In this document: in pieces, positions 7,186-63,759 of the stretch | Layout of the letters: each line of letters starts with the position of its first letter | Position numbering within the stretch: position 1 is the stretch's first letter | DNA from: Neocallimastix lanati (nom. inval.) | Taxonomy: Eukaryota; Neocallimastigomycota; Neocallimastigomycetes; Neocallimastigales; Neocallimastigaceae | Length of the DNA: 64,000 nucleotides | Assembly: GCA_016946835.1 (NCBI GenBank) | Contig: JACVTC010000053.1 | Location: forward strand, 85,001-149,000 | Direction of reading: 5' to 3' | Program-made: the position numbers and the translations under genes | Notes under the pieces: model-generated | Databases searched by the model: none | Told to the model about the DNA's origin: nothing | The model's input: the letters and a program-made list of their open reading frames with translations, nothing else

Positions 7186-10100
7186 TTAGCATTGAGCTGA
7201 AATAATACCACACCATTGATTAAACTCATATCCCCAGGATCCATCAGAATCCGTTTCATAGACTCTGCATCCTTTACAACATGGATATCCTAATTCTTCT
7301 GACCAACATTCACCAGAATCCTTTTGTAATGAAGAATCTTCATATACAGTTAATCCACACCATTCATTCTTAACGAAATCATAGCTCCAATCTCCATATT
7401 CATCTTGTGCATAAATGGTAGTAAATTCAGGTGAACAACATGGATATCCAATAAATTCAGATAAACATTTATTTTTATCTATAGTTTCAGATATTGGTAA
7501 TAACGTTTCTGTTTCTGTTGGCTCAAATAATGAAGTAGAAGTAGGAAGAGCAGTATCTTCAATTGAAGTAGTACTTTCAATAATTGAAGAATCAATAATT
7601 GAAGTAGTTGGATCAATAATTGAAGAATCAGTAATTGAAGTAGTAGGTTCAATACTTGAAGAATCAATAACTAAAGTAGAGGTAGGAAGAATGATATCTT
7701 CAATAGAAGAAGTTGTTTCAATGTCATTAGAATCAAATGTTGAAGTCATGGAAGGAAGAACGGTATCTTCAATAGAAGTACTGGTTTCAATGATTTCAGA
7801 ATCAAATGTTAAAGTTGAAGTAGGAGGAACGGTATCATCAATAGAAGTACTGGTTTCAATAATCGAATCAATTATTGAAGTAGTGGTAGGAAGAACGATA
7901 TCTTCTGTCGATGTATTGGTTTCAATAATATTAGTATCAAATGTTGAAGTAGTAATATCTTCAATAGAAGTAGTCATTTCAATGACAATTGAATCAAATG
8001 TTGGAGTTGCAATAAAGATTGAAGAACTTTCAGTTTCTGTTGAATATAATGATTCAATTACATTTATATCTTCATCAAGATAGTTAGGATCACATTCAAT
8101 GTTATATTCATGACAAATATCTCTATATCTCAAAAGAATAAATTCTTTCAAACCTAACGTGGAATTATTAGATTCAATGGAGGCTTCCCATTCTTCCATA
8201 GTGTAAAAAGTATTATCATTATTATTAATTCTACCAGGGTATTGGCCATCCTCATTGGGAGTTTTATCTAATTGAAGATAAGGTCTAATAAATGATTTTA
8301 TTTCATCAATTCGTGGGAATAATGTGGCAGGATTAAAAACATTAGTTACAATTTCTTTTATTATTTCAATAAAACGATCCATATTACTAGATATTAACAT
8401 ATTTAATATTTCATTTTCCATAAAATATATAAAATCTTCACTAATAAACCTTTTATAATATATATCTCCGGTACCCAAAGTAAGATCGAAATCATGAATT
8501 AAATATGTCCATTTATTATTTTTAGGATTTTTATAAATATAATAATTATGACCACTGTAGAATTGATCCCATGAAGACGTTATAAGTTCAATGGCAATTT
8601 CTTTATAAAATTGTTCAATATCAAAAATGGATTCAACATCCGCTGCTGATTTAGCTTTAGTCATTTTCAATAAAAATTTGTAGAGTTCTTTTTTTTCATC
8701 ATCTTTAGCTTCTTTATTTTCATTTTCGAAGCCATCCTTTGTACGGTACGTTAAATCACAGCGTTCACATTTATATAAATTTGTAGTATCTTTTTCTCCA
8801 TAAACATATTCAATCCAAGATTCTTTATAAGCATCTGTTAAAATATACAATCCCATGAACTCATCATTAATATATAACATGGCATAATTTGCTGAAAGTG
8901 ATGGTAATCCCAATTTATTATGAATATCACTCATCAATTTAGTTTTCAAGAAAGATGGATCTTTTGCATCACCACGAAGTTTAAATTGACGTCGTCCAAA
9001 TAATTCTTTTCCTCCTCGAATTTTTAAATTAAAAGGAGGTTTTGAAAAGGTACGTGAATATTGACCACCTAAAGAAAAAGTGATTTTATTAAATGATTTT
9101 TTTTGACTATAAATTTATTTTATATAAATGATATATAGTTTTATAAAATTTTTTTTAATAAAATATTAAAAATTCATTATAAAATATTTATTTATATTTT
9201 AAATATTATATTAATTTATTTATTAATAAACAGTTAATAATAATTATTAATTAATAACAATTAATAATTATTAATTAATAGTTAATAATAATTAATAATT
9301 AAATAAATTATAATAATAATACTAATACGAAAAATTATGATAGTATTTTTATATTCATAATATCATTATGAAAAAATAGTATTAATATTAAAATGGGTTA
9401 AATTAAAATACTTACTTATTAATTTCAACAATCATAGTAGCATTTTTGGTTTTGAATTCAATAATACCTTTTATTTCTTTTTCATTATTTGTTTTAGTAA
9501 ATTTGTAATTATCTATATGCTTCATTAAATCTGAAGTATTATAGTTATCTGTATAATCATTTATTTTACTATTATAGAAATCAGATTCTATATCATCCAT
9601 TATATAAACTAAATCTCCATTTTCATTTAAATAAACATTCTCAATATAATAGTTGATATTCTCTATAAAATCATTGATTTCTCCAAAAGAAAAAGAAGAT
9701 TCATATAAATGAGAAAGAGTATAAAAGATTTTAATTAGATTTAAATATTCATTATTATTAAAGAACTCAAAAATAAATTTTTTAAAACTCATTTCCATGT
9801 CGTCATCTTCATTACTTAGAAAATTACTATTATATTCTATACACTTTTCAAAATCAATACTTGGATGTCCATTTTCATTCATTGGTAATTCAGGTAATAT
9901 TTCTGAAAAATTAATTCCAGGGAATATTTCTGTAAAGTTTTGTTTATTTACATATTCAATAATTTCTTTGATTTCTATTAATCTTTCATCATTTAAGAAT
10001 ATAAAATTTCCATTACTATCCATAAATACTTGATTTCCGAATTTATATACATATTCCCATATTTCATCATATTTTCTTAAAGGTGTTTCCAATTCAGAAA

Positions 10101-12965
10101 GAGTATAGAAAACTTTTATTAAATTCAAGTATTCATTAGTATTAAAAATGCTAAATAAAATTTCTGTATTGCTGTTACATTCATCTTCTAAATTTCGATA
10201 TTCATCATCTGAGATAATATATTTTTTATAATCAATATTTGGATGTCCATTTTCTTTCATTGGTAACTCTGGTAATATTTTAGTAAAATTATATCCTGGA
10301 AATATTTCATTTAAGTTTTGTTTATTCAATAATTCAACTATTCCTTTAACCGTTAAAATATAACTTTCATTTTTATATTTGAAATTTCCATTATCATCTA
10401 ATTCAATACTATTTTCAAACGATTTTATATAATACCATATTTCATCATTATCATTTTTTGTTGATACATTTAAATTGTAGAGTGTATGGAACACCTTTAT
10501 CAAATTTAAATATTCATTATTATTAAAAATGTTAATTAAAATTTCTGTATTATTGTTACATTCTTCTTTTAAATTTCGATATTCATCATCAGAGATAATA
10601 TATTTTTTATAATCAATATTTGGATGTCCATTTTCATTCATTGGTAACTCTGGTAATATTTCGGTAAAATTATATCCTGGAAATATTTCATAAAAGTTTT
10701 GTTCATTTAAAGAATTAACTATTTCTTTAATATTATAAATATAATCAGTATTTCTATATGAAAAATCTTCATTATCATCTCTATGTATATATTTTAAATA
10801 TGAGTTTATAGTATCCCACATTTCATTATCTTTTTTTGTAGATACATTCAAATTAGAAAGAATATAAAAAACTTTTATCAAATTCAAATATTTATTATTA
10901 TTAAAAATGTTAAATAAAATTTCTGTAGTACTGTTACATTCATATTCTAAATTTCGATATTCTTCATCAGAGATAATATATTCTTTATAATCAATATTTG
11001 GATGACCATTTTCTTTCATCGGTAACTCTGGTAAGATTTCTGTAAAGTTATATCCTGGAAATATTTCATAAAAGTTTTGTTCATTTAAGGAATCTACTAC
11101 ATTTTTAATCATTTGGATATAATATTCATTAATATATATAAAATTTTCTTCATCCTTAATTACATGATTTCCAAAATTTTGTATATATTTCCATATTCTT
11201 TCATTATACAACGTTGTAGACGTATTTAAATTGGAAAAAATATAAAAAACCTTTATTAAATTTAAATATTCATTATTATTAAAAATGTTAAATAAAATTT
11301 CTGTAGTACTGTTACATTCATAGTTTAATTTTCGATATTCATCATCAGAGATAATATATTTTTTATAATCAATATTTGGATGTCCATTTTCATTGATTGG
11401 TAACTCTGGCAATATTTCTGTAAAATTATATCCTGGAAATATTTCATAAAAGTTTTGTTCATTTAAAAAATTAACTATTTCTTTAATATTATAAATATAA
11501 TCAGTATTTCTATATGAAAAATTTCCATTATCATCTCTATGTATATATTTTAAATATGAGTTTATAGTATTCCACATTTCATTATCTTTTTTTGTAGATA
11601 CATTCAAATTGGAAAGAGTATAGAAAACTTTTATCAAATTTAAATATTTATTATTATTAAAAATGTTAAATAAAATTTCTTTAATATTTTTATATTCATA
11701 TTCTAAAACTTGATATTCTTCATCAGAGATAATATATTCTTTATAATCAATATTTGGATGACCATTTTCTTTCATCGGTAACTCTGGTAAGATTTCTGTA
11801 AAGTTATATCCTGGAAATATTTCATAAAAGTTTTGTTCATTTAAGGAATCTACTACATTTTTAATCATTTGGATATAATATTCATTAATATTTATTAAAT
11901 TTTCTTCATCCTTATTTACAAAATTTCCATAAATTTGTATATATTCCCATATTCTTTCATTATACAACGTTGTAGACGTATTTAAATTGGAAACAATATG
12001 AAAAACCTTTATTAAATTTAAATATTCATTATTATTAAAAATGTTAAATAAAATTTCTGTAGTACTGTTACATTCATAGTTTAATTTTCGATATTCATCA
12101 TCAGAGATAATATATTTTTTATAATCAATATTTGGATGACCATTTTCTTTCATTGGTAATTCTGGTAATATTTCGGTAAAATTATATCCTGGAAACATTT
12201 CATTAAAGTTAACTTCATTTATTGAATCAACTATCTTTTTAATTTTTCCAATATAATCCAATCGATAATATAAAAAATTTCCATCATCATCCATAATTAT
12301 CCTATCTTTAAATAAATATACTATATCCCAAAAATCTGTATCAAAATCTGAGAATATCAACTCATTTTGAAACATATAGATAACTTTTATTAAATTTAAG
12401 TATTCATTATTTTTAAAAATGTTAAATATTATTTCATTAATATCACCATATTTTCTATAAAGTTTTAGATATTCTTGATAGGAAAGTAAAAATTTAGTTT
12501 CATCAATATTTGGATAACCATCATCTTTAAGTGGTAATTCTGGTAATAATTCAGAAAAATTATATTCTGGAAATAATTTTGTTAAATTTTGATGATTTAT
12601 TGAATTAATTATATCTTTTATGTTATCATTAATTATATCTAAAGGAAATATATTATTTGCAGCTCTTTTTAAACTATAAAATTCATTTCCTGGTAAAGTT
12701 ATTCTAAATATTGGAACTTCATTATCCATCATTTCAAATATTTCAGCACGTTGACCTTTTGGAAAGAAAGATATCTCCCCCAAAGCATTATAAACTATTA
12801 AAGTATAAAAATATAAAATATATAAAATATATATTATTATAATGATATTTTATATTACTATAATTTATCAAAGATTTAAAAAAAATATTTGTATTTAAAT
12901 ATATATTATTATTTAAAAAAATAATTACCACAAATAAAAAGAATAATTAAAATATTTAATTTCAT
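7186..12965 (-). CDS. Gene 1: secreted repeat-expanded CotH protein with two fungal dockerins (intact)
   Basis: Three exons, read on the minus strand: 12929-12965, 9416-12794 and 7186-9106, giving 1778 codons plus stop with no break. Exon 1 starts at the only suitable ATG and encodes [12 protein letters not shown]. Splicing (GTAATT donor, phase 1) completes a signal peptide ending near NALG. Residues about 19-77 are the N-terminal CotH strand region ([13 protein letters not shown]). Eight ~126-residue modules follow (about 78-1060), then [12 protein letters not shown]. Exon 3 joins in phase 2 after a GTAAGT donor and carries [33 protein letters not shown], a conserved Asp with HN (D1319, H1325-N1326) and the metal-binding-type DFD (1344-1346). 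A Ser/Thr linker and two Cys-rich dockerins complete the protein. CotH proteins are atypical protein kinases in bacteria; in gut fungi they are dockerin-bearing cellulosome components of uncertain role. Kinase activity here is inferred from retained motifs only. Confidence 0.9.
7189..7473 (-). other. Gene 1: two C-terminal fungal dockerins
   Basis: Two Cys-rich repeats of about 40 residues. The first begins [11 protein letters not shown] and ends NEWCGL; the second begins [14 protein letters not shown] and ends NQWCGI, followed by ISAQC and the stop. The pattern C-x2-E-x3-GYPCC ... GxWGY/WSY ... WCG(L/I) is the fungal dockerin (CBM10-like) signature, which in gut fungi binds scaffoldin cohesin-like partners. 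Confidence 0.92.
7474..8060 (-). repeat. Gene 1: Ser/Thr/Glu-rich linker with ~22-23-residue repeats
   Basis: Degenerate repeats of the type [20 protein letters not shown] separate the CotH core from the dockerins. The composition (Thr, Ser, Pro, Ile, Asp, Glu) fits an extended, probably O-glycosylated linker. The periodic codons also create a long open frame on the opposite strand, which I do not regard as a gene. Confidence 0.8.
9652..12600 (-). repeat. Gene 1: eight tandem ~126-residue modules
   Basis: Eight modules (378 bp each; one has 127 residues) share the core [18 protein letters not shown] followed by [13 protein letters not shown], then [19 protein letters not shown] and a variable acidic tail ending in a [12 protein letters not shown]-like helix. 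Modules 2+3 and 4+5 form a higher-order dimer (see the separate entry). Modules 1 and 8 are the most divergent, as expected for end units of an array that expands internally. I do not recognise the module as a named domain. Confidence 0.92.
10711..12222 (-). repeat. Gene 1: higher-order dimer repeat (2 x 756 bp)
   Basis: Modules 2-3 (11467-12222) and 4-5 (10711-11466) are two copies of a 252-residue dimer. In each, the first half ends with a NERIWEYIQ...KDEEN...[12 protein letters not shown] tail and the second with a KKDNEMW...YLKYIHRDD...[10 protein letters not shown] tail. Genes 2 and 3 contain a single copy of this dimer at the same place. Confidence 0.88.
12795..12928 (-). other. Gene 1 intron 1 (134 bp, phase 1, splits the signal peptide)
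   Basis: Donor GTAATT at 12928 and acceptor ATAG ending at 12795. The joined codon is G/TT (Val). An intron in the equivalent position is present in all five paralogs (133-150 bp). Without it the second exon has no upstream in-frame ATG before the EMMDNEV segment, which supports the splice model. Confidence 0.85.
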
Positions 12966-13107
12966 TTTTAGTCATATAACAACAACTATTTATTAAAAAA
13001 AAATTGTTATTTTATTTATAGTTATAAAATAATTTATAATTTATAATCTTATATAAAAAAGTTTTTTTTTATTTTTTTATATTATATAATATTTTGTTTT
13101 TTATAAT

Positions 13108-13145
<38 letters not shown>

Positions 13146-15208: not shown

Positions 15209-15237
15209 AAATAATAATTAGGTTAGGTATTTCTATT

Positions 15238-15475: not shown

Positions 15476-15702
15476 AAAAAAATAAAATAAAATAAAAAAT
15501 AAAAAATAAAAATAAAAATAAATAAATAAAATAGTAAATAAAGAAATAATAAATAATTAATAATTAAATAATTATTTAAATAATTATATTATATAATTAA
15601 TTAAAAAAAGATTTATTATTTTAAGTATTAAAAAACAAAAAGTTTTAAAACATTTAAAAGTATATTTATTAAAATATTTTATTGAAAAATTTTTAATTAT
15701 TA

Positions 15703-17330: not shown

Positions 17331-17360
17331 TTATAACTAAAACCGATTTATTTGATACTA

Positions 17361-19340: not shown

Positions 19341-19345
19341 TTTTT

Positions 19346-20302: not shown

Positions 20303-23300
20303 TTAGCATTTAGCTGAAATAATACCACACCATTGATTAAATTCATATCCCCAGGATCCATCAGAATCCGTTTCATAGACTCTGCATCCTTTACAACATG
20401 GATATCCTAATTCTTCTGACCAACATTCACCAGAATCCTTTTGTAATGAAGAATCTTCATATACAGTTAAACCACACCATTCATTCTTAACGAAATCATA
20501 GCTCCAATCTCCATATTCATCTTGTGCATAAATGGTAGTAAATTCAGGTGAACAACATAGATATCCAATAAATTCAGATAAACATTTATTTTTATCTATA
20601 GTTTCAGATATTGGTAATAACGTTTCTGTTTCTGTTGGCTCAAATAATGAAGTAGAAGTAGGAAGAGCAGTATCTTCAATTGAAGTAGTAATTTCAATAA
20701 TCGAAGAATCAATAATTGAAGTAGTAGGTTCAATAATTGAAGAATCAGTAATTGAAGTAGAGGTAGGAAGAACAATATCTTCAATAGAAAAAGTTGTTTC
20801 AATGGTATTAGAATCAAATGTTGAAGTTATGGTAGGAAGAACATTATCTTCAATAGAAGTACTGGTTTCAATGATTTCAGAATCAAATGTTAAAGTAGAA
20901 GTAGGAAGAACGGTATCTTCAATAGAAGCACTGGTTTCAATAATCGAATCAATTATTGAAGTAGTGGTAGGAAGAACGATATCTTCTGTCGATGTATTGG
21001 TTTCAATAATATTAGTATCAAATGTTGAAGTAGTAATATCTTCAATAGAAGTAGTCATTTCAATGACAGTAGAATCAAATGTTGAAGTTGAAATAAAGAT
21101 TGAAGAACTTTCAATTTCTGTTGAATAGAATGATTCAGTTACATTTATATCTTCACCAAGATAATTAGGATCACATTCAATGTTAAATTCATGACAAATA
21201 TCTCTATATCTCAAAAGAATAAAACTTTTTAAACCATACACGGAATTATCAAATTCAGTGGAGGCTTCCCATTCTTCCATAGTGTAAAAAGTATTATCAT
21301 TATTATTAATTCTACCAGGGTATTGACCATCTTCATTGGGAGTTTTATCTAATTGAAGATAAGGTCTAATAAATGATTTTATTTCATCAATTCGTGGGAA
21401 TAATGTGGCAGGATTAAAAACATTAGTTACAATTTCTTTTATTATTTCAATAAAACGATCCATATTACTAGATATTAATGCATTTAATATTTTATTTTCC
21501 GTAAAATTTATTAAATCTTCACTAACAAAACTTTCATAATCTTCATAACCGTTACCCAAAGTAAGATCGAAATCATGAATTAAATATGTCCATTTATTAT
21601 TTTTAGGATTTTTATAAATATAATAATTATGACCACTGTAGAATTGATCCCATGAAGACGTTATAAGTTCAATGGCAATTTCTTTATAAAATTGTTCAAT
21701 ATCAAAAATGGATTCAACATCCGCTGCTGATTTAGCTTTAGTCATTTTCAATAAAAATTTATAAAGTTCTTTTTTTTCATCATCTTTAGCTTCTTTATTC
21801 TCATTTTCAAAGCCATCTTTTAAGCGGTACGTTAAATCACAGTATTCACATTTATATAAATTTGTAGTATCTTTTTCTCCATAAACATATTCAATCCAAG
21901 ATTCTTTATAAGCATCTGTTAAAATATACAATCCCATGAACTCATCATTAATATATAACATGGCATAATTTGCTGAAAGTGATGGTAATCCCAATTTATT
22001 ATGAATATCACTCATCAATTTAGTTCTCATTGAAGATGGATCTGTTGCATCACCACGAAGTTTAAATTGACGTCGTCCAAATAATTCTTTTCCTCCACGA
22101 ATTTTTAAATTAAAAGGAGGTTTTGAAAAGGTACGTGAAAATTGACCACCTAATGAAAAAGTGATTTTATTAAATGATTTTTTTTGACTATAAATTTATT
22201 TTATATAAATGATATATAGTTTTATAAAATTTTTTTTAATAAAATATTAAAAATTCATTATAAAATATTTATTTATATTTTAAATATTATATTAATTTAT
22301 TTATTAATAAACAGTTAATAATAATTATTAATTAATAACAATTAATAATTATTAATTAATAGTTAATAATAATTAATAATTAAATAAATTATAATAATAA
22401 TACTAATACGAAAAATTATGATAGTATTTTTATATTCATAATATCATTATGAAAAAATAGTATTAATATTAAAATGGGTTAAATAGAAATACTTACTTAT
22501 TAATTTCAACAATCATAGTAGCATTTTTGGTTTTGAATTCATTAATACCTTTTATTTCTTTTTCATTATTTGTTTTAGTAAATTTGTAATTATCTATATG
22601 CTTCATTAAATCTGAAGTATTATAGTTATCTGTATAATCATTTATTTTACTATTATAGAAATCAGATTCTATATCATCCATTTTATAAACTAAATCTCCA
22701 TTTTCATTTAAATAAACATTCTCAATATAATCGTTGATATGCTCTATAAAATCATTGATTTCTCCAAAAGAAAAAGAAGATTCATATAAATGAGAAAGAG
22801 TATAAAAGATTTTAATCAGATTTAAATATTCATTATTATTGAAGAAGTCAAAAATATATTTTTCAAAACTTATATACATGTATTCATTTTCATTAATTTG
22901 AATATTGCTTTTAGATTTTATACACTTTTCAAGATCAATACTTGGGTGTCCATTTTCATTCATTGGTAATTCAGGTAATATTTCTGAAAAATTAATTCCA
23001 GGAAATATTTCTGTAAAGTTTTGTTTATTTACATATTCAATAATTTCTTTGATTTCTATAAATCTTTCATCATTTAAGTATATAAAATTTCCATTACTAT
23101 CAATAAATACTTGACTTCCGAATTTATATATATATTTCCATATTTCATCATATTTTCTTAAAGGTGTTTCCAATTCAGAAAGAGTATAGAAAACTTTTAT
23201 CAAATTCAAGTATTCATTATTATTAAAAATGTTAAATAAAATTTCTTCATTGTTTTTAAATTCATCTTCTAAATTTCGATATTCATCATCTGAGATAATA

Positions 23301-25289
23301 TATTTTTTATAATCAATATTTGGATGTCCATTTTCTTTCATTGGTAACTCTGGTAATATTTCTGTAAAATTATATCCTGGAAATATTTCATTAAAGTTAA
23401 CTTTATTTATTGAATCAACAATTCCTTTAATTGTTAAAATATAGCTTTCATTTTTATATTTGAAATTTCCATTATCATCTATTTCAATACTATTTTCAAA
23501 TGATTTTATATAATACCATATTTCATCATTATCATTTTTTGTTGATACATTTAAATTGTAGAGTGTATGGAACACTTTTATCAAATTTAAATATTCATTA
23601 TTATTAAAAATGTTAATTAAAATTTCTGTATTGCTGATACATTCATCTACTAAATTTTGATATTTATCATCAGAGATAATATATTTATTATAATCAATAT
23701 TTGGATGACCATTTTCATTCATTGGTAACTCTGGCAATATTTCTGTAAAATTATATCCTGGAAATATTTCATAAAAGTTTTGTTCATTTAAAGAATTAAC
23801 TATTTCTTTAATATTAAAAATATAATCAGTATTTCTATATGAAAAATTTTCATTATCATCGCTATGTACATATTTTAAATATGAGTTTATAGTATCCCAC
23901 ATTTCATTATCTTTTTTTGAAGATACATTCAAATTAGAAAGAATATAGAAAACTTCTATCAAGTTTAAATATTTATTATTATTAAAAATATTAAATAAAA
24001 TTTCTGTAGTACTGTTACATTCATATTCTAAATTTCCATATTCTTCATCAGAGATAATATATTCTTTATAATCAATATTTGGATGTCCATTTTCTTTCAT
24101 CGGTAACTCTGGTAAGATTTCTGTAAAGTTATATCCTGGAAATATTTCATAAAAGTTTTGTTCATTTAAGGAATCTACTACATTTTTAATCATTTGGATA
24201 TAATATTCATTAATATAAATAAAATTTTCTTCATCTTTAATTACATGATTTTTATAATTTTGTATATATTCCCATATTCTTTCATCATACAACGTTGTAG
24301 ACGAATTTAAATTGGAAACAATATAAAAAACCTTTATTAAATTTAAATATTCATTATTATTAAAAATATGAAAAAAAATTTCTGTATCGCTGTTGCATTC
24401 ATCTTCTAAATTTCGATATTCGTCATCAGAGAAAATATATTTTTTATAATCAATATTTGGATGTCCATTTTCATTCATTGGTAATTCTGGTAATATTTCG
24501 GTAAAATTATATCCTGGAAACATTTCATTAAAGTTAACTTCATTTATTGAATCAACTATCTTTTTAATTTCGTTAATAAAATTGAATTTATAATATAAAA
24601 AATTTCCATCATCATCCATAATTATTTTATTTTTAAATAAATTTAGTATATTCCATAAATCTGTATCAAAATCTGAGAATCTCAACTCATTTTGAAACAT
24701 ATAAATAACTTTTATTAAATTTAAGTATTCATTATTTTTAAAAATATTAAATATCATTTCCTTAATATCACCATATTTTCTAAAAAGATTTAGATATTCT
24801 TGATAGGAAAGTAAAAATTTAGTTTCATCAATATTTGGATAACCATCATCTTTAAGTGGTAATTCTGGTAATAATTCAGAAAAATTATATTCTGGAAATA
24901 ATTTAGTTAAATTTTGATGATTTATTGAGTTGATTATATCTTTTATTTTATTATTAATTATATCTAATGAAATTAATTTATTTGCTGCTCTTTTTATACT
25001 ATAAAATTCATTTCCTGGTAAAGTTATTCTAAATATTGGAACTTCATTATCCATTATTTCAAATATTTCAGCACGTTGACCTTTTGGAAAGAAAGATATC
25101 TCCCCCAAAGCATTATAAACTATTAAAGTATAAAAAGATAAAATATATAAAATAATAATTATTATAATGATATTTTATATTACTATAATTTAACATAGAT
25201 TTAAAAAAATATTTATATTTATATATAAATTATTATATAAAAAAATAATTACCACAAATAAAAAGAATAATTAAAGTATTTAATTTCAT
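20303..25289 (-). CDS. Gene 2: secreted repeat-expanded CotH protein with two fungal dockerins (intact)
   Basis: Three exons on the minus strand: 25253-25289, 22497-25119 and 20303-22187, total 1514 codons plus stop, fully open. Exon 1 encodes [12 protein letters not shown]; the intron positions, phases and donors (GTAATT, GTAAGT) are those of gene 1. The mature protein starts near [10 protein letters not shown] and has only six ~126-residue modules, lacking one copy of the two-module unit that gene 1 has twice. The CotH core keeps the SWD...HN segment (D1067) and DFD (1092-1094), followed by a Ser/Thr linker and two dockerins. The first dockerin has GYLCC instead of the near-invariant GYPCC. 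Its 309-bp second intron differs from that of gene 1 at only two positions by eye, while parts of the CotH exon differ far more, which suggests recent conversion or duplication with selection on exons. Function as for gene 1: a likely cellulosome-associated CotH protein. Confidence 0.9.
20306..20590 (-). other. Gene 2: two C-terminal fungal dockerins, first with Pro-to-Leu change
   Basis: The same two-dockerin layout as gene 1. In the first repeat the GYPCC motif reads GYLCC (codon near 20562), a change not seen in the other paralogs. The second repeat ([14 protein letters not shown] to NQWCGI) is unchanged. Confidence 0.88.
22733..24925 (-). repeat. Gene 2: six tandem ~126-residue modules
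   Basis: Module order corresponds to modules 1, 2, 3, 6, 7 and 8 of gene 1. The fifth starts [10 protein letters not shown] instead of [10 protein letters not shown], suggesting a junction or conversion from module 2. All keep the FPGYNF-x-E-I-LPELPM and ENGHPNID core, with a diverged version in module 1. Confidence 0.88.
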
Positions 25290-42720: not shown

Positions 42721-45700
42721 TTAACAGCGGGATGATATTATACCACACCATTCATTAAATTCATATCCCCATGATCCATTTGAATCAGTTTCATAGATTC
42801 TACATCCTTTACAACATGGATATCCATATATTTCAGACCAACATTCTTCAGATTCACCTTGTTTCGAGGAATCTTCATGCTTGGCTAAACCACACCATTC
42901 ATTCTTGGTAAAATCATAACCCCAATCTCCATATTCATCTTGAGCATAAACGGTCTTAACTTTTGATGAACAACATGGATATCCATATATTTCCGACCAA
43001 CACTCATCGGAATTACCTTGACTTAATGGATCTTCATTTTTAGTTAAACCACACCATTCATTCTTGGTGAAATCATAACCCCAATCTCCATAGTCATCTT
43101 GAGCATAAACGGTTGTAAATTCAGATGAACAACATGGATATCCAATGAATTCTGAAAGACATTTAAGTGATGTTACTGCTTCTGTTGGTTCCTCTAATGT
43201 TGATGTTGCTGTAGGAAGAATAGTATCTTCAACAAAAGTAGTAGTTTCAACAACAACAGAATCAAAGGTTGAAGTAGCAGTAGAAGGAACGGAATCTTCA
43301 ATAGAAGTAGTGGTTTCATCAATATTAGAATCAAATATTGAAGTAACAGTAGGAAGAATGGTATTTTCTACAGATGTAGTTGTTTCAATATCAACAGAAT
43401 CATATGTTGAAGTAGAAGTAGAAAGAATAGAATTTTCAATAGAAGTAGTAGTTTCAATATCAACAGATTCAAACGTTGAAGTAGCAGTAGAAAGAATGGA
43501 ATCTTCAATAGAAGTAGTGGTTTCATCAATATTAGAATCAAATATTGAAGTAACGGTAGGAAGAACGGTATCTTCAATAGAAGTGGTGGTTTCAATGAAG
43601 GTAGATTCAACTGTTGAAGTTGAAGTTTCCGTTGGATATAATAATTCAGTTTCGGTTATTGTTATATTATTGTTGTTATCAAGATAGTTTGGATCACATT
43701 CAATATTATATTGTTGGCAAACAAATTTATATTTTAAGAGAATAAATTGTTTCAATCCTAATTGTGATATATCATATTCAGTTGAAGCTTCCCATTCCTC
43801 CATAGTGTAAAAAGTTCTATCATTTATATTCATTCTACCAGGATATTTACCATCCGAATTTGGTGTTTTATCTAATTTAACATAAGGTCTAATAAATGAT
43901 TTTAATTCATCAATTCTAGGGAATAATGTTGCTGGATTAAAAACTTTAACTACGATTTCTTTTAATATTTCAATAAAATGATCATAATTACTATAAATCA
44001 ATTTATACGCTACTTCATTTTCTAAATATTCTTCAAATGTTTTATATACGTCACTTTCAAAGGATGATAACGTCCAACCTAAATCAAAATCAAAATCAAG
44101 AACTAAATAAATCCATTTATTATTTTGAGGATTTTTATAAATATAATAATTATGATAACTATTAATATGATCAAAAGAAGCTGCTAAATAATCAATAGCG
44201 ACTTCTTTATAAAATTGATCAATATCAAAAATAGATTCAACATCTGTCCATGATTCAGCAGTCGTCAATTTTGCTAAAAATTCATAGAGTTCTTTCTTAT
44301 CCGTAGCTTCTTTATTTTCATTTTCAAAACCAGATCTTCCATCATATGTTAAGGAACAACTATCACATTTATATAAATTTTTAGTATCTTTTTCTCCATA
44401 AACATGTTCTATCCAAGTTTCTTTATATACATCTGTTAAAATATATAAACCTATAAATTCATCATTAATATATAATAAAATATAGTTTGCTGAAAGTGAT
44501 GGTAAGCCTAATTTATTATGAATATCACTCATTAATTTAGTTCTCATATAGGATGGTTCTGAAATATCACTACGCAATTTAAATTGACTACGACCAAATA
44601 ATTCTTTATCTCCACGAATTTTTACATTAAAAGCAGGTTTTGCATAATTACGAGAATTATGACCACCTAATGAGAAAGTAATTTTTTTAAATGATAATGT
44701 TTGACTATAAAAATTTTTAATTAAAAAAAAAAAAAAAAATAAAATAAAATAAAAATATACATTAATATAAATTTTAAATTAATTAGTTAAAAATTAAATA
44801 AATAAGTATTTATTTATATAAATTATATAATAAAACAAAATAAAATATAATATATATAAAAAGAAAGGTTTAATTTAAAAAAATAATAATAATTTAATAA
44901 AAACAAACAAATAATTATAAATAATAATAAATAATATATAAATAATAATAAAATATTAATACATATATAATAATTATATTATAAAAATTAAAATAAATAA
45001 TAATTAAATAATTAAATTAATAAAAAAATTTTATAAATAATTACTTATTAATTTCAACTGTCATAGAACCATTTTTAGTTTTATAATTATTCATATAATC
45101 TGTTTTACTTTCATTATTGGTAATATTAAAATTGTAATTTTCGAAATGTTCTTTGAAATAATTAGAATCAAATTTACTTTTCATACTATTTTCAGCATCA
45201 TCAGCACCATTATAAATAAATTCTCCATCTTTTAGAGCTGTTTGTGTTCCTAAGCGATATATATAATATTCTAATTTATCATCAACATTTTTTGATTTCA
45301 TTTTTAATTGAGAAATAGTATAAAAGACTTTGATTAAGTTTAATTTATTATTATCATTGAAAGTATTAAATAAAAATTCTAATTCATCATCTGAATCATA
45401 CAAATATTCATATTGAATACTAATTTCTAAATAATCTCTAAAATTGATATTTGGATGTCCATTTTCATTCATTGGTAATTCAGGTAATATTTCGGAAAAA
45501 TCGTATCCTGGAAATATTTCATTAAAGTTTTGTTCATTTAAGTATTCAATTACTTCTTTAATAAATTCAAATGACTTTTTCATTATTTCGAATTCTCCAT
45601 TGCTCATCTTTACTACATTATTCCCATATTCATTTATATAATTTAAGAGATCATCATCAATTATTTTAGATGTATCCATTTCTGAAAGAATATAAAATAC

Positions 45701-48554
45701 ATTTATTAAATTTAATTCCTTATTATTATTTAAGATATGAAATACTTGTTCATTGAGATTATTATATTCATAATTCAACTTCATAGAATCTTTTTCTGGA
45801 ATTAAAAATATTTTATAATCAATATTTGGATATCCATCTTCACTCATTGGTAATAACTCATTAAAATCATATTCTGGAAACATTTCTTTAAAGTTTTGTT
45901 CATTTAATGTATTAACTATTTTTTCAATTTCTTTAAAATATTCCTTATTTAAATTTAAATAATAAAAATTTCCATCATCATCCTTATGGATATTATTATT
46001 ATTAAATTTTTCTAAATAATCATATAAATCACCATCTTCTATCTCAGAAATATCTAATTCTGGAAGAAGATAAAATAATTTTATTAAATTGAAATATTTA
46101 TTATTATTAAAAATATTAAATATAATTAAATAATCATAATCATATTTCTCTTCTAATTCTTCATATTCACTTTCAGAGATTATATATTGTTTAAAATCAA
46201 TATATGGATGTCCATTTTCATTCATTGGTAATTCAGGTAATATTTCAGTATAATTAGTTCCTTTAAATATTTCATTTAAATTTTGTTTATTTAAATATTT
46301 TACGATTTTTTTAACGTCTCTGACATAATATTTGTCAATATATTGGAGATTTCCATCATCATCAATAATTACATTATCTCTAAAATCAACTATATATTCC
46401 AATGATTCATCATCTTCTATTTCAGAAGTATCTAATTCTGGAAGAAGATAAATTACTTTTATTAAATTTAAATATTTACTATTATTAAAAATATTAAATA
46501 AAATTAAATTATACCTATATTTCTCATCTAATTCATCATATTCACTTTCAGAGATTATATATTTTTTAAAATCAATATTTGGATGTCCATTTTCATTCAT
46601 TGGTAATTCAGGTAAAATTTCAGTATAATTAGTTCCTTTAAATATTTCATTTAAATTTTGTTTATTTAAATATTCTACAATTTTTTTAACGTCTTTGATG
46701 TAATGTTTGTCAATATATTGGTAATTTCCATCATCATCAATAAATACATTATTTCTAAAATCAACTATATATTCCAATGATTCATCATCTTTTATTTCAG
46801 AAGTATCTAATTCTGGAAGAATATGAATTACTTTTATTAAATTTAAATATTTACTATTATTAAAAATATTAAATAAAATTAAATGTTCATTACTATATTT
46901 CTCCTCTAATTCTTCGTATTCACTTTCAGAGATTAAATATTGTCTAAAATCAATATTTGGATATCCATTGTTTTTCATTGGTAATTCAGGTAATATTTCA
47001 GCATAATCATTTCCTTTAAATATTTCATTAAAGTTTAATTTATTTATTTTTTCTACAATACTTTTAATATATTGGTTATAATAATTTGATATATATTGGA
47101 AATTTTCATCATTATCTTTATAGACATTAAATCCGAAATTATTAATATTACTAATTAAATCATCATCAGGATTTATTTCGGATAAATCTAATTGTGAAAT
47201 AGTATTAAATACTTTTATTAAATTTAAATATGAATTATTATTAAAAATGTCAAATAAAATTTGTTCGTCTGAATATTGAGATTTTAATTCCTGATATTTT
47301 CTTTCTGTTGGTACATATTTATGAAAATCAATATTTGGATGTCCATTTTCATTCATAGGTAATTCTGGTAATGATTCATTGAAATCAAATCCTGGAAATA
47401 TTTCATTAAAATTTTGTTTATTTAAGGAAATAACTATTTTATTAATTTTTTTAATATAATCCGAAGGTGTGTATTGGAAATTTCCATCATCATCCATATA
47501 TACATGTAATCCATATTTATCAATATTTTTCGTTATATCATCAAAATTATTATTTATTTCATAGATATTCAATCCTGAGAGAGTATAAAATACTTTAATC
47601 AAATTGAGATATTCATTATCACGAAGATTCTTAAATATTATTTCATCTATGTTATAAAAATAATCATTTTCACTTTCATCTATAATGTATTTTTGATAAT
47701 CAATATTCGGATGACCATTTTCATTCATTGGTAATTCAGGTAATATTTCATTAAAATTATATCCTGGAAATATTTCTTTTAAATTTTGTCTATTTAATGA
47801 ACTTACTATTCCTTTAATATTTCTATTATATTCATTTCTTTCATATTGAAAATCACCATTATCATCCATAAAAGACCAATTAAAATATCTCTTTATATAC
47901 ATTCTTAGATTTTCATCTTCATTTAATAGATATTCATCTAATTTCGAAAGAATATAAAAAACTTTTATTAAATTTAGATGTTCTTTACTATTTAATTTAC
48001 TAAATATGATTTCTTCTGAAGAATTATAAACATTAATTAAATTTTTATATTCTTCTTCTGTGATAATATAATTATTAACATCAATATTTGGATATCCATC
48101 TTCATCAAATGTTAATTCAGGAAATAATTCATTAAAATTAGTTTCTGAAAGTATTTCATTAAAGTTATGTACATTTAATGAATAAATTACCTCCTTAATT
48201 TCATTATTAATATAATCTGCCGTAAATAAAACATTTGCTACATTCTTTATATATTTATATTCATCTTCAGGTATAGTTATTCTGACGGTAGGAACTTCAT
48301 TATCCATTTTTTCAAATAATTCAGCTCGCTGACCTTTTGGAATAAAAGGTACATCACCCAAAACATAATAAACTATAAAAAATTTAAAAACATAAGATAT
48401 TGTAATTAATTTTAATAATAAACATATATTATTAATAAAATAAATTTAGAAATAATGTTATTTAGAAATTTTATAATATTTAATTATAAAAGGTATTATA
48501 ATATAAAAAATATTTACCAAATGAAAATAGGGAAAGCAGAATAATAATTTTCAT
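42721..48554 (-). CDS. Gene 4: secreted repeat-expanded CotH protein with three fungal dockerins (intact)
   Basis: Three exons on the minus strand: 48518-48554, 45045-48372 and 42721-44704, total 1782 codons plus stop, fully open. Exon 1 encodes MKIIILLSLFSF; splicing (GTAAAT donor, phase 1) gives a signal peptide ending near VYYVLG. The mature protein starts GDVPFIPKGQRAELFE, then VPTVRITIPEDEY (CotH N-terminal strand). Eight modules follow, with NEIFKG variants in modules 4-6. The sequence then resumes KTKNGSMTVEIN, splices in phase 2 (GTAATT donor) and continues FSLGGHNSR, KIRGNKELFGR and [15 protein letters not shown]. The motifs SFD (D1300), HN (1306-1307) and DFD (1325-1327) are kept. 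A linker with six ~23-residue units and three dockerins end the protein. It represents subfamily B, with a different N-terminus and one more dockerin than genes 1-3. Likely role: a cellulosome-docked, kinase-like protein, inferred from family. Confidence 0.9.
42724..43165 (-). other. Gene 4: three C-terminal fungal dockerins
   Basis: Repeats beginning [24 protein letters not shown] and [14 protein letters not shown], each ending with WCG(L/I). The first two share YAQDxYGDWGYDF-TKNEWCGL and look like a recent internal duplication; genes 1-3 have only one of this type. Confidence 0.92.
43187..43620 (-). repeat. Gene 4: linker with six ~23-residue repeats
   Basis: Units of the type ETTTSIEDSILSTATSTFDS (69 bp), about six in tandem. 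Gene 5 has about eleven, so this tract changes length by whole units. Confidence 0.85.
45206..48178 (-). repeat. Gene 4: eight tandem ~126-residue modules
   Basis: Modules share [15 protein letters not shown] and the [12 protein letters not shown] segment. Modules 5 and 6 are near copies of one another ([20 protein letters not shown] in both). Module 7 has a shortened core, LLPMSEDGYPNID, lacking the ELP residues; this is also true in gene 5, so the change predates their split. Confidence 0.9.
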
Positions 48555-51660: not shown

Positions 51661-51674
51661 ATTAGATATACCTA

Positions 51675-53825: not shown

Positions 53826-53849
53826 TATATAGAAATGGAAGTAGTATAA

Positions 53850-57912: not shown

Positions 57913-57915
57913 TTA

Positions 57916-58357
57916 ACAGCGGGATGATATTATACCACACCATTCATTAAATTCATATCCCCATGATCCATTTGAATCAGTTTCATAGATTCTACATCCT
58001 TTACAACATGGATATCCATATATTTCAGACCAACATTCTTCAGATTCACTTTGTTTCGAGGAATCTTCATGCTTGGCTAAACCACACCATTCATTTTTGG
58101 TGAAATCATAACCCCAATCTCCATATTCATCTTGAGCATAAATGTTCTTAACTTTTGATGAACAACATGGATATCCATATATTTCCGACCAACACTCATC
58201 GGAATTACCTTGACTTAATGGATCTTCATTTTTAGTTAAACCACACCATTCATTCTTGGTGAAATCGTAACCCCAATCTCCATAGTCATCTTGAGCATAA
58301 ACGGTTGTAAATTCAGATGAACAACATGGATATCCAATGAATTCTGAAAGACATTTG
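57916..58357 (-). other. Gene 5: three C-terminal fungal dockerins
   Basis: Nearly identical to those of gene 4 (for example [18 protein letters not shown] against [18 protein letters not shown]). All Cys and GYPCC motifs are intact. Confidence 0.9.
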
Positions 58358-58374
58358 AGTGATGTTACTACTTC

Positions 58375-59170
58375 TGTTGGTTCTTCTAATGTTGAGGTTG
58401 CTGTAGGAAGAATAGTATCTTCAACAAAAGTAGTAGTTTCAACAACAACAGAATCAAAGGTTGAAGTAGCAGTAGAAAGAACGGAATCTTCAATAGAAGT
58501 AGTGGTTTCATCAATATTAGAATCAAATATTGAAGTAACAGTAGGAAGAATGGTATTTTCTACAGATGTAGTAGTTTCAATATCAACAGAATCAAATGTT
58601 GAGGTAGCAGTAGAAAGAACGGAATCTTCAATAGAAGTAGTGGTTTCATCAATATTATAATCAAATATTGAAGTAACAGTAGGACGAATGGTATCTTCAA
58701 TAGAAGTAGTGGTTTGATCAATATTATAATCAAATATTGAAGTAACAGTAGGTAGAATGGTATCTTCTACAGATGTAGTAGTTTCAATATCAACAGAATC
58801 AAATGTTGAAGTAGCAGTAGAAATAACAGAATTTTCAATAGAAGTAGTGGTTTCATCAATATTATAATCAAATATTGAAGTAACAGTAGGAAGAATGGTA
58901 TTTTCTACAGATGTAGTAGTTTCAATGTCAACAGAATCAAATGTTGAAGTAGCAGTAGAAATAACAGAATTTTCAAATGAAGTAGTGGTTTCATCAATAT
59001 TAGAATCAAATATTGAAGTAACGGTAGGAAGAACGGTATCTTCAATAGAAGTAGTAATTTCATCATTATTAGAATCAAATATTGAAGTAACGGTAGGAAG
59101 AACGGTATCTTCAATAGAAGTGGTGGTTTCAATGAAGGTAGAATCAACTATTGAAGTTGAAGTTTCCGTT
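58375..59170 (-). repeat. Gene 5: linker with about eleven ~23-residue repeats
   Basis: Alternating units of two types, one with DTVLPTVTSIFDSNID and one with NSVISTATSTFDSVDI, repeated so that a two-unit (138-bp) block is visible. Five units more than gene 4. Confidence 0.85.
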
Positions 59171-60779
59171 GGATATAATAATTCAGTTTCGGTTATTGTT
59201 ATATTATTGTTGTTATCAAGATAGTTTGGATCACATTCAATATTATATTCTTGGCAAACAAATTTATATTTTAAGAGAATAAATTGTTTCAATCCTAATT
59301 GTGATATATCATATTCAGTTGAAGCTTCCCATTCCTCCATAGTGTAAAATGTTCTACTGTTTATATTCATTCTACCAGGATATTTACCATCCGAATTTGG
59401 TGTTTTATCTAACTTAACATAAGGTCTAATAAATGATTTTAATTCATCAATTCTAGGGAACAATATTGCTGGATTAAAAACTTTAACTACGATTTCTTTT
59501 AATATTTCAATAAAATGATCATAATTACTATAAATCAATTTATATGCTACTTCATTTTTCAAATATTCATCAAAAGTTTTATATATGTCACTTTCATATG
59601 AAGATAACGTCCAACCCAAATCAAAATCAAAATCAAGAACTAAATAAATCCATTTATTATTTTGAGGATTTTTATAAATATAATAATTATGATAACTATT
59701 AATATGATCAAAAGAAGCTGCTAAATAATCAATAGCGACTTCTTTATAAAATTGATCAATATCAAAAATAGATTCAACATCTGTCCATGATTCAGCAGTC
59801 GTCAATTTTGCTAAAAATTCATAGAGTTCTTTCTTATCCGTGGCTTCTTTATTTTCATTTTCAAAACCAGATCTTCCATCATATGTTAAGGAACAACTAT
59901 CACATTTATATAAATTTTTAGTATCTTTTTCTCCATAAACATGTTCTATCCAAGTTTCTTTATATACATCTGTTAAAATATATAAACCTATAAATTCATC
60001 ATTAATATATAATAAAATATAGTTTGCTGAAAGTGATGGTAAGCCTAATTTATTATGAATATCACTCATTAATTTAGTTCTCATATAGGATGGTTCTGAA
60101 ATATCACTACGTAATTTAAATTGACTACGACCAAATAATTCTTTATTTCCACGAATTTTTACATTAAAAGCAGGTTTTGCATAATTACGAGAATTATGAC
60201 CACCTAATGAAAAAGTAATTTTTTTAAATGATAATGTTTGACTATAAAAATTTTTAATTAAAAAAAAAATAAAATAAAATAAAATAAAAATATACATTAA
60301 TATAAATTTTTAATTAATTAATAAATTTATAAATAAATAAATATTAATTTATTTTTTTATTTATTTATTTATTTATATAAAAATAATAATAAAACAATAT
60401 AAAATATATAAAATATAATATATATAAAAAGAAAGGTTTAATTTAATAAAATAATAATAAATTAATAATAATAAATAATATTTATAAATAATTATAAATA
60501 ATATATAAATAATAATAAATAATAATAAATAATAATACATATAATAATTGTATTATAAAAATTAAAATAAATAATAATTAAATAATTAAAGTAATAAAAA
60601 AAATTTATAAATAATTACTTATTAATTTCAACTGTCATAGAACCATTTTTAGTTTTAAAATTACTTCTATAATCTGTTTTACTTTCATTATTGGTAATAT
60701 TAAAATTGTAATTTTCGAAATGTTCTTTGAAATAATTAGAATCAAATTTACTTTTCATATTATTTTCAGCATCATCAGC

Positions 60780-63378
60780 ACCATTATAAATAAATTCTCC
60801 ATCCTTTAGAGCTGTTTGTGTTCCTAAGCGATATATATAATATTTAAATCTATTTTTAACATTTTTGGATTCCATTTTTAATTGAGAAATAGTATAAAAG
60901 ACTTTGATTAAGTTTAATTTATTATTATCATTGAAAGTATTAAATAAAAATTCTAATTGATCATCTGAATCATACAAATATTCATATTGAATACTAATTT
61001 CTAAATAATCTCTAAAATTGATATTTGGATGTCCATTTTCATTCATTGGTAATTCAGGTAATATTTCGGAAAAATCGTATCCTGGAAATATTTCATTAAA
61101 GTTTTGTTCATTTAAGTATTCAATTACTTCTTTAATAAATTCAAATGACTTTTTCATTATTTCGAATTCTCCATTGCTCATCTTTACTACATTATTCCCA
61201 TATTCATTTATATAATTTAAGAGATCATCATCAATTATTTTAGATGTATCCATTTCTGAAAGAATATAAAATACATTTATTAAATTTAACTCCTTATTAT
61301 TATTTAAGATATGAAATACTTGTTCATTGAGATAATCATATTCATAATCCAACTCCCTAGAATCTTTTTCTGGAATTAAAAATATTTTATAATCAATATT
61401 TGGATATCCATTTTCACTCATTGGTAATAACTCATTAAAATCATATTCTGGAAACATTTCTTTAAAGTTTTGTTCATTTAATGTATTAACTATTTTTTCA
61501 ATTTCTTTAAAATATTCCTTATTTAAATTTAAATAATAAAAATTTCCATCATCATCTTTATGGATATTATTATTATTAAATTTTTCTAAATAATCATATA
61601 AATAACTATCTTCTATCTCAGAAATATCTAATTCTGGAAGAAGATAAAATAATTTTATTAAATTGAAATATTTATTATTATTAAAAATATTAAATATAAT
61701 TAAATAACCATAATCATATTTCTCTTCTAATTCTTCATATTCACTTTCAGAGATTATATATTTTTTAAAATCAATATTTGGATGTCCATTTTCATTCATT
61801 GGTAATTCAGGTAAAATTTCAGTATAATTAGTTCCTTTAAATATTTCATTTAAATTTTGTTTATTTAAATATTCTACGATTTTTTTAATGTCTCTGACAT
61901 AATATTTGTCAATATATTGGAGATTTCCATCATCATCAATAATTACATTATTTCTAAAATCAACTATATATTCCAATGATTCATCATCTTTTATTTCAGA
62001 AGTATCTAATTCTGGAAGAGTATTAATTACTTTTATTAAATTTAAATATTTACTATTATTAAAAATATTAAATAAAATTAAATAATCATTATTATATTTC
62101 CTCCTCTAATTCTTCGTATTCACTTTCAGAGATTAAATATTGTCTAAAATCAATATTTGGATGTCCATTGTCTTTCATTGGTAATTCAGGTAATATTTCA
62201 GCATAATCATTTCCTTTAAATATTTCATTAAAGTTTAATTTATTTATTTTTTCTACAATACTTTTAATATATTGGTTACAATAATTTGATATATATTGGA
62301 AATTTTCATCATTATCTTTATAGACATTAAATCCGAAATTATTAATACTACTAATTAAATCATCATCAGAATTTATTTCGGATAAATCTAATTGTGAAAT
62401 AGTATTAAATACTTTTATTAAATTTAAATATGTATCATTATTAAAGATGTCAAATAAAATTTGTTCGTCTGAATATTGAGATTTTAATTCCTGATATTTT
62501 CTTTCTGTTGGTACATATTTATGAAAATCAATATTTGGATGTCCATTTTCATTCATAGGTAATTCTGGTAATGATTCATTGAAATCAAATCCTGGAAATA
62601 TTTCATTAAAATTTTGTTTATTTAAGGAAATAACTATTTTATTAATTTCTTTAATATAATCCGAAGATGTGTATTGGAAATTTCCATCATCATCCATATA
62701 TACATGTAATCCATATTTATCAATATTTTTCGTTATATCATCAAAATTATTATTTATTTCATAGATATTCAATCCTGAGAGAGTATAAAATACTTTAATC
62801 AAATTAAGATATTCATTATCACGAAGATTCTTAAATACTATTTCATCTATGTCATAAAAATAATCATTTTCACTTTCATCAATAATGTATTTTTGATAAT
62901 CAATATTCGGATGACCATTTTCATTCATTGGTAATTCAGGTAATATTTCATTAAAATTATATCCTGGAAATATTTCTTTTAAAATTTGTCTATTTAATGA
63001 ACTTACTATTGCTTTAACTTCTCTATTATATTTATTACTTTCATATTGATAGTTACAATTATCATCCATAAAAGACCAATTAAAATATCTTTTTATATAC
63101 ATACTTAGATTTTCATTTTCATTTAATAGATATTCATCTAAATTCGAAATAATATTAAATACTTTTATTAAATTTAGATGTTCTTGACTATTTAATATAT
63201 TAAATATGATTTCTTCTGAAGAATTATAAACATTAATTAAATTTTTATATTCTTCTTCTGTGATAATATAATTATTAACATCAATATTTGGATATCCATC
63301 TTTATTAATTAATAATTCAGGTAATAATTCATTAAAATTAGTTTCTGAATGTATTTCATTAAAGTTTTGTTCATTTAT
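60780..63378 (-). repeat. Gene 5: seven tandem ~126-residue modules
   Basis: Same order as gene 4 but with one fewer module: the two near-identical modules 5 and 6 of gene 4 correspond to one module here, whose N-terminal part is closer to module 5 and C-terminal part to module 6, as expected from unequal recombination. The frameshift lies in module 4. Confidence 0.85.
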
Positions 63379-63759
63379 TGAATAAATTATCTCCTTAACT
63401 TCATCATTAATATAATCTGCTGAAAATAAAACCTTTGCTATATTCTTTATATATTTATATTCATCTTCAGGTAAATTTATTCTAACGGTAGGAACTTCAT
63501 TATCCATTTTTTCAAATAATTCAGCTCGCTGACCTTTTGGAATAAAAGGTACATCACCCAAAACATAATAAACTATAATTATATAAAAATATAAGATATA
63601 AATAAATATTAAATTTATTATTATAAATTAAAAAATTTATAAAAAATTTTATAAAAATAATATTATTTAGAAAGTTTATAATATTTATTTATAAAATATA
63701 TTTTAATATAAAAAATAATTACCAAATGAAAACAAAATAAGTGGAATAATTATTTTCAT

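What the first reader, a model, noticed from the sequence alone, without database searches (positions are those of the whole stretch)
7186..63759. Tandem family of CotH-dockerin proteins with a repeat array inserted in the CotH domain
Five co-directional genes each carry 6-8 copies of a ~126-residue module between the N-terminal CotH strand (VPxxRIxxPxxE) and the KTKNA-x-M-x-VEIN strand that continues into the CotH core. Dockerin-bearing CotH proteins are known in gut fungi, but as far as I know they are compact. Here a segment with the LPELPM / ENGHPNID core seems to have been amplified in place, giving proteins of ~1500-1780 residues. The array could be a binding arm, a spacer or a decoy surface on the cellulosome. 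This is my candidate for an undescribed system.
Basis: partly seen in the sequence, partly recalled or inferred. Interest (0 to 1): 0.9.

Follow-up and report, generated by a model that had tools for sequence, protein, structure and literature searches.

The report
Expandable repeat arm in fungal CotH
In what looks like the genome of an anaerobic gut fungus, neighbouring genes for secreted kinase-like proteins that carry docking tags hold a repeated protein block with no match in the libraries searched, in up to eight copies at one fixed place, which looks like an arm that evolution lengthens step by step.

Summary
Five minus-strand genes carry 8, 6, 6, 8 and 7 copies of a module (usually 126 residues) between the motifs VPxxRIxxP and KTKN(A/G), followed by CotH, a Ser/Thr linker and fungal dockerins. 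One phase-2 intron joins array to CotH in all five; two intronless compact paralogs show the same join. g3 has a stop before its last dockerin; g5 has a frameshift inside module 4. They belong to a larger cluster (12 module loci in about 135 kb), and the genome holds a graded series of 0, 1, 2, 4, 6, 7 and 8 modules, insert 35 to 1079 residues. The module is thus a widespread element of this CotH subfamily, amplified apparently more than once. No accepted Pfam, NCBIfam, PDB-sequence or PDB-fold match was found; an above-cutoff Pfam hit (Biotin_carb_N) looks spurious. AlphaFold2 folds two modules confidently as helices with small hairpins. First half constrained (dN/dS about 0.4), second half freer (0.8). 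That both motifs are CotH strands is assumed: they precede the Pfam profile. Function is inferred: probably an acidic binding or reach arm on a cellulosomal CotH protein. A new variant of a known kind.

The parts
7186..12965 (-). Gene g1: 3 exons (12965-12929; 12794-9416; 9106-7186), 8 modules, CotH, Ser/Thr linker, 2 dockerins; 1778 aa predicted
9454..12588 (-). g1 module array m1-m8 (about 378 bp each, last one longer)
12691..12717 (-). g1 N-terminal motif VPIFRITLP (taken as first CotH strand; not shown)
9418..9453 (-). g1 [12 protein letters not shown] motif; continues into exon 3 after a phase-2 GT-AG intron
8080..9093 (-). g1 CotH domain (PF08757)
7471..8079 (-). g1 Ser/Thr-rich linker, itself internally repeated
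7192..7470 (-). g1 two fungal dockerins (PF02013)
20303..25289 (-). Gene g2: 6 modules (22535-24913), CotH 21161-22174, 2 dockerins; 1514 aa
30447..35335 (-). Gene g3: 6 modules (32516-34942; m4 has a 17-residue internal duplication), CotH 31188-32201, one dockerin; in-frame stop removes the last dockerin
42721..48554 (-). Gene g4: 8 modules (45083-48166), CotH 43684-44691, 3 dockerins; 1782 aa
57913..63759 (-). Gene g5: 7 modules (60657-63366, frame broken near 62095-62105 inside m4), CotH 59221-60228, 3 dockerins

Best explanation
SHOWN: these are CotH-dockerin proteins with a hydrophobic first exon, in which a module of about 126 residues, present once in related CotH proteins and predicted to fold on its own as helices with small hairpins, has been tandemly multiplied at one fixed site, between two conserved N-terminal motifs that directly precede the Pfam-defined CotH domain. 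Copy number changed by duplication of one or two modules. INFERRED: the two motifs are the first strands of the CotH fold, and the array projects from it as an acidic multi-domain arm. The conserved first half of each module keeps the fold, and the variable second half is the outward surface that contacts partners. The dockerins fix the protein to the cellulosome, and the arm extends the reach and number of contacts of the CotH domain, most likely to proteins of the complex or cell wall rather than to sugar. If both motifs do pack in CotH, the arm must bend back, or use the acidic tail after the last module, to return.
For: Copy-number ladder at one site. All five window genes and 13 of 14 other genes join array to CotH in the same intron phase. 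AlphaFold2 of two modules: pLDDT 88.4, pTM 0.63; of the whole g2 array: most blocks of modules 1-5 at 72-92 pLDDT, the last module lower, both flanks under 50 when CotH is absent, which fits flanks that belong elsewhere but is indirect. dN/dS of pooled modules in g1-g3 0.50-0.58, near the CotH core's 0.46-0.55; first 72 residues 0.41, rest 0.79. Net charge -7 to -22 in the 16 modules of g1 and g4, Trp 0.5% over the window modules, which argues against an aromatic sugar-binding face.
Against: No binding or structural experiment. g4-g5 modules show dN/dS 0.99 on few changes, and single-module pairs reach 1.2-1.7 (g1m1/g3m1, g1m7/g2m5, g2m1/g3m1; g4m1/g5m1), so part of the array may evolve freely or be diversified. 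Four of the cluster's 12 loci are damaged (g3 stop, g5 frameshift, 170-kb copy without CotH, 218-kb copy apparently cut by a retroelement), so selection on each copy is weak. The AlphaFold2 alignments are shallow (20 and 6 rows) and only from this window; pTM 0.46 means the arm's overall shape is unknown. That the flanking motifs are CotH strands was not tested: a spliced protein could not be submitted, and the match to the solved CotH starts after them.
Confidence: 0.38

Rival explanations
1. The modules are a passive spacer: they only set a distance, and sequence beyond the fold core does not matter.
For: Second half of the module is little constrained (dN/dS 0.79); copy number varies 0-8; strongly acidic composition. 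If the two motifs do not both pack in CotH, the array is simply an N-terminal extension.
Against: If both motifs are neighbouring CotH strands, an insert between them does not separate the two ends of the protein; the Ser/Thr linker already can serve as spacer. First and last modules keep their identity within each gene subfamily (supports 0.99-1.0 within subfamilies, weak between them).
Confidence: 0.27
2. Largely neutral birth and death: unequal crossing-over in tandem DNA expands a tolerated surface insert without new function.
For: Tandem gene cluster with damaged copies, dN/dS 0.99 for g4-g5 modules against 0.15 for their CotH core, recent two-module block duplication in g1 (m2-m3 and m4-m5, each pair 90% alike).
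Against: Array exons of about 600-1150 residues stay open in g1-g4 and in five four-module genes; first half under constraint; apparently amplified separately in the CotH gene on contig C5 (support 0.91).
Confidence: 0.25
3. Carbohydrate- or wall-binding array analogous to tandem carbohydrate-binding modules.
For: Dockerin-bearing protein of a presumed plant-wall degrader; CotH-dockerin proteins have been speculated to bind plant cell wall (PMC8665504, passage).
Against: Trp 0.5%, Cys 0.4%, helical model, no carbohydrate-binding family among the Pfam matches.
Confidence: 0.08
4. Decoy or immune-type variable surface.
For: Variable second halves; module 1 has dN/dS above 1 in 3 of 4 gene pairs (g1-g3, g2-g3, g4-g5; 0.83 in g1-g2), on 3-5 synonymous changes each.
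Against: Pooled dN/dS is not above 1 in any pair; small counts; no antagonist that would target it was found or looked for.
Confidence: 0.02

Closest known systems
Dockerin-bearing CotH proteins of anaerobic fungi (about 20% of dockerin proteins in five genomes, PMC8665504 passage; ATPase work of Lillington et al. 2023 seen only as a reference entry, content recalled)
   Same: CotH domain and CBM_10 dockerins; compact CotH genes without the module occur in this genome (L019, L032, L044)
   Different: No description of a 126-residue module array was found in the library searched
Spore coat protein H of Bacillus (PDB 5jd9, 5jda)
   Same: CotH core by sequence (E 3.2e-15), HNY and DxD stretches aligned
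   Different: Only 40 residues precede the aligned core in the chain, so no room for a module; whether its first strands match the two motifs was not tested
Bacterial cellulosomal CotH, e.g. CseP and the LTD-LTD-Fn3-CotH protein Cthe_0239 of Clostridium thermocellum (PMC6083626, table passage)
   Same: CotH with type I dockerin; extra domains possible
   Different: The extra domains listed there are named ones
EF-hand proteins (calcineurin B)
   Same: Weak profile resemblance over the D-x-(D/N)-G loops (E 0.33)
   Different: Not significant; no EF-hand protein among the 50 fold hits shown of 276

Membership tests
CotH kinase (PF08757) | Pfam CotH profile over curated cut-off | tested here: met
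   All five genes 133-157 bits, cut-off 23.8
CotH kinase (PF08757) | HNY and DxD residues aligned with solved CotH (their role is recalled) | tested here: met
   HNYYIYKN and DFD align with HNYALYHN and DYD of 5jd9 for g1; g4 and g5 read LDFDFDLG by eye
CotH kinase (PF08757) | Protein kinase activity | not testable with these tools
   none
CotH kinase (PF08757) | The two flanking motifs being strands of the CotH fold (array inside the domain) | not tested
   Both precede the Pfam match and the aligned part of 5jd9; flanks unfolded in the array-only model
Fungal cellulosome subunit | Fungal dockerin (PF02013) | tested here: met
   2 in g1 and g2, 3 in g4 and g5; g3 keeps one, 21.9 bits, under the 23.0 cut-off
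Fungal cellulosome subunit | Secretion signal | tested here: inconclusive
   Short hydrophobic first exon by eye; no predictor run
Fungal cellulosome subunit | Presence in isolated complexes | not testable with these tools
   none
Biotin carboxylase N-terminal domain (PF00289) | Profile match kept across the module family and a matching fold | tested here: not met
   Over the 25.5-bit cut-off in g1 (43.2), g2 (34.0), g4 (25.7) and a two-module piece of g1 (28.7), but under it in g3 (22.9); of 7 relatives 2 are weak (13.7, 18.7) and 5 have none; 0 of 14 single modules match at E 1; no such fold among hits shown
Any named domain in Pfam, NCBIfam or PDB | Significant match of the module | tested here: not met
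   14 of 31 modules scanned in Pfam and NCBIfam and as a profile in the PDB; two fold searches
EF-hand | Helix-loop-helix calcium loops | tested here: inconclusive
   Profile E 0.33-3.2 to EF-hand chains, 4 of the 5 chains listed, one Pfam member at 0.077, none among fold hits shown

The most novel reading that the evidence does not exclude
A new protein fold serves as a length- and specificity-tunable arm: CotH proteins of gut fungi have a permissive insertion site near the start of the domain where one module was taken in and then amplified independently in at least two lineages, giving a second, kinase-linked scaffold in the fungal cellulosome whose positions bind different partners.
Probability: 0.15. 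Interest if true: 0.75.

Novelty: new variant of a known kind. Interest (0 to 1): 0.5.

Why it matters
In the passages read, CotH is about a fifth of dockerin proteins in five gut fungi or among the five most abundant domains, while its role there is called unclear or enigmatic. A genome with a series of 0 to 8 modules at one site gives natural length variants for asking what the CotH domain contacts, and adds a protein domain with no accepted match in the libraries searched.

Tried and rejected
Biotin_carb_N: an above-cutoff Pfam hit (g1 43.2 bits, g2 34.0, g4 25.7, a two-module piece of g1 28.7; cut-off 25.5). Rejected because by its coordinates it spans the junction of two modules, it seems to rest on a short PGYxF stretch (profile letters recalled), it is under the cut-off in g3, weak or absent in 7 relatives, and 0 of 14 single modules show it. 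EF-hand: weak profile resemblance only, not seen in the fold hits shown. N-glycosylation: an N-x-(S/T) sequon sits at the same column in 48 of 67 near and 5 of 14 distant modules, but the +2 residue is also N or D and starts a helix, so helix capping explains it as well. Viral and prokaryote collections: 0 confirmed relatives from 36 and 249 pattern matches. Structure search: no match at E 0.001 or better for two modules in the PDB or the viral library, none for the array in the PDB. The VIA-align library was not available.

A first dN/dS pairing of g4 with the second g5 frame was out of register (rows g4-g5b) and was replaced. The module tree (FastTree, midpoint root) uses 81 modules, 67 of the array group and 14 distant; it left out matches under 77 residues or 18 bits or below, and g5 m4-m7. 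C190's two modules group together without listed support, so I claim no separate amplification there. The 1962-residue frame on contig C65 is a run of N read as X.

Full report
WHAT IS THERE. The window is bases 85001-149000 of contig C479 of a 199-Mb, 762-contig genome. On the minus strand lie five genes with the same plan: a short hydrophobic first exon, a long second exon, and a third exon with CotH, a Ser/Thr-rich linker and CBM_10 dockerins. The second exon opens with GQRAExFExMDNEVPxxRIxxP and ends with KTKN(A/G)xMxVEIN; between the two are 8, 6, 6, 8 and 7 modules in g1 to g5. First and inner modules are 123 to 144 residues, usually 126; the last, counted up to KTKN and so with an acidic tail, is 149 to 162.

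IT IS NOT CHANCE. Tandem Repeats Finder gives a 378-bp period with 7.4 copies in g1, and the anchor motif is found 8 times in the real exon and 0 times in 2000 shuffles. The 31 whole modules compared, of 35, are 30-96% identical to one another. Invariant in the 14 aligned in A1: N1, L18, G24, P26, I28, N67, L68, I69 of the first row.

THE EXONS JOIN. Within the donor and acceptor limits that I set, each of 19 genes (5 in the window, 14 paralogs with modules) has exactly one GT-AG pair that keeps both frames; in 18 of 19 the joined peptide is of the kind VEINNQ..SFxKITFSL, always in phase 2, and for the nineteenth (C5) the peptide did not fit my search pattern. Two compact CotH genes on the same contig (L019, C479 34-42 kb) have no intron there and read straight through KNATLVVEINDKEEKFxKVxFDIGG.

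WHERE IT IS INSERTED. They occur in that order in 30 gene rows, in compact genes too, but both lie before the part that Pfam's CotH profile matches and before the part that aligns with the solved Bacillus CotH. I take them as the first strands of the fold; that is an assumption.

DAMAGE. g3 carries an in-frame stop just before its last dockerin; g5 has a frameshift inside module 4. Whether these are real or assembly errors cannot be told here.

THE GENOME-WIDE PICTURE. A search with one g2 module gave 88 matches; queries with a C5 and a C10 module gave 45 and 88. The tool warns that such counts are lower bounds. Grouped by eye they form 36 loci, 12 on C479 between about 94 and 229 kb and 24 elsewhere. 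For 30 of the 36 a CotH match lies just downstream on the same strand; one (C479, 170 kb) has none in the stretch read, and five could not be judged because the CotH lists were cut short (124 of 303 candidates scored, 150 of 294). I read 40 stretches (L009-L048). In 30 gene rows where both motifs were found by pattern, the insert between them is 35 residues (two genes without module), 64-116 (eight without module), 138-180 (seven with one module, five of them weakly matching), 259-308 (four with one or two), 522-576 (five with four), 827 and 843 (g2, g3, six) and 1062 and 1079 (g4, g1, eight). Missing from that count: g5 and C65, whose frames are broken, one four-module gene (L020) whose second motif the pattern missed, and the stretches where no pair of motifs was found. 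So the module is a recurrent, often single-copy element of one CotH subfamily, and the window shows its most amplified members among those read.

HISTORY OF THE ARRAY. In a tree of 81 modules, first modules group with first and last with last inside each gene subfamily (0.99-1.0), but grouping by position between subfamilies is weak. Modules m2-m6 of g4 with m2-m3 of g5 form one group (0.94) apart from those of g1-g3, so the inner part seems to have expanded separately. g1 differs from g2 by an extra two-module block (m2 and m4 90% identical, m3 and m5 90%). The four degenerate modules of the gene on contig C5 form their own group (0.91), which suggests an independent amplification; a further array of at least three modules lies on C124 near 1,202,400-1,203,300, not read.

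SELECTION. For g1, g2, g3 pairs the pooled modules have dN/dS 0.50-0.58 and the CotH core 0.46-0.55. Single modules range from 0.21 to 1.62 there, 3 of 18 pairs above 1. Pooled over those pairs the first 72 residues give 0.41 and the rest 0.79. Between g4 and g5 six module pairs together give 0.99, or 0.75 without module 1, on small numbers of changes, against 0.15 for their CotH core. This is a simple counting method in a very AT-rich genome and should be read loosely: the first half is constrained, the second half much less, and free drift or diversification of parts is not excluded.

STRUCTURE. AlphaFold2 on two modules (20 of 29 window pairs as rows) gave mean pLDDT 88.4 and pTM 0.63: helices, a one-residue bridge across the NENGHP turn, and a small hairpin around DxxGNF. 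The whole g2 exon 2 (6 rows) gave 74.7 and 0.46; most blocks of modules 1-5 at 72-92, the last module lower, the first 44 and last 61 residues under 50. That the flanks do not fold with the array fits their being CotH strands, but it is indirect, because a spliced protein could not be submitted. Foldseek found no PDB match at E 0.001 or better for either model.

FAMILIES. Pfam and NCBIfam give nothing significant for the 14 single modules scanned. One trap is Biotin_carb_N over cut-off for exon 2 of g1, g2 and g4; reasons for rejecting it are given under tried and rejected. The PDB profile search lists EF-hand proteins first but at E 0.33 and worse.

LITERATURE. Six searches of the open library listed no title or abstract start that names such a repeat, and CotH, 'tandem repeat' and 'anaerobic fungi' together gave 0 papers. 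I saw passages only: CotH as about 20% of dockerin proteins, with wall binding as speculation (PMC8665504); counts of dockerin-CotH in tortoise fungi (PMC10978972); role unclear, structural or kinase (PMC12484212); CotH among the five most abundant domains (PMC6054980); 'enigmatic CotH' (PMC4672494). The key biochemical paper (Lillington et al. 2023) was seen only as a reference. Most subscription papers are outside the library, so I cannot say the array is unpublished, only that these searches did not find it.

HOW IT PROBABLY WORKS. The dockerins should place the protein on the fungal cellulosome (established for this domain type, recalled). If both motifs pack in CotH, the array leaves and re-enters the domain at neighbouring strands and is a loop-out arm rather than a linker. 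Acidic charge (-7 to -22 in the 16 modules of g1 and g4; -132 to -167 for the whole proteins g1-g4), lack of Trp and a helical model point to protein contacts or cation-dependent stiffening rather than sugar binding. I hold this at 0.38; passive spacer at 0.27 and neutral expansion at 0.25.

VERDICT. A real, well-defined repeat domain, not matched in the libraries or papers searched, in a known protein kind. Less exotic than proposed, because the genome shows a path from zero to eight copies, but that series is also what makes it testable.

Noticed in passing
window 15697-17135 (+) and 51031-54505 (-): Two broken copies of a FLYWCH/MULE-type transposase gene between the CotH genes (first copy: FLYWCH E 2.6e-9, MULE only weak). 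Two pieces of the second copy gave no Pfam match but read alike by eye.
   Followed up: partly
window 7471-8079, 20588-21160, 30615-31187, 43165-43683, 58357-59220: The Ser/Thr-rich linker between CotH and the dockerins is itself a tandem repeat in g1 and g2 (about 69- and 135-bp periods, list cut before the others) and differs in length; it would be a natural candidate substrate for the CotH domain.
   Followed up: no
window 7415-8083, 20532-21125, 30559-31152, 43109-43684 (+): Long open frames antisense to the Ser/Thr linker; probably a by-product of its composition, not genes.
   Followed up: no
L024:2793-4151 (C479 about 219 kb): A Copia-type retroelement fragment (read by eye) runs in frame into the second half of an array, which keeps only two modules; looks like an insertion that truncated the gene.
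   Followed up: no
L018 (contig C426) and L017 (contig C65): Array genes close to g2 (one module 97% over 101 residues, CotH 91%) and to g3, both with broken frames; C426 is a 24.5-kb contig and may be an alternative haplotype with poor polishing rather than a separate locus.
   Followed up: partly
L036 and L037 (contigs C83 and C741): Two CotH regions with the same exon 2 reading on different contigs, possibly alleles.
   Followed up: no
g3 module m4, 33380-33811: A 17-residue internal duplication (IISDDEY...EEC segment) inside one module, a small-scale repeat expansion.
   Followed up: no
modules, alignment column 10: An N-x-(S/T) glycosylation sequon at one column in 48 of 67 near and 5 of 14 distant modules; may only reflect helix capping.
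   Followed up: partly
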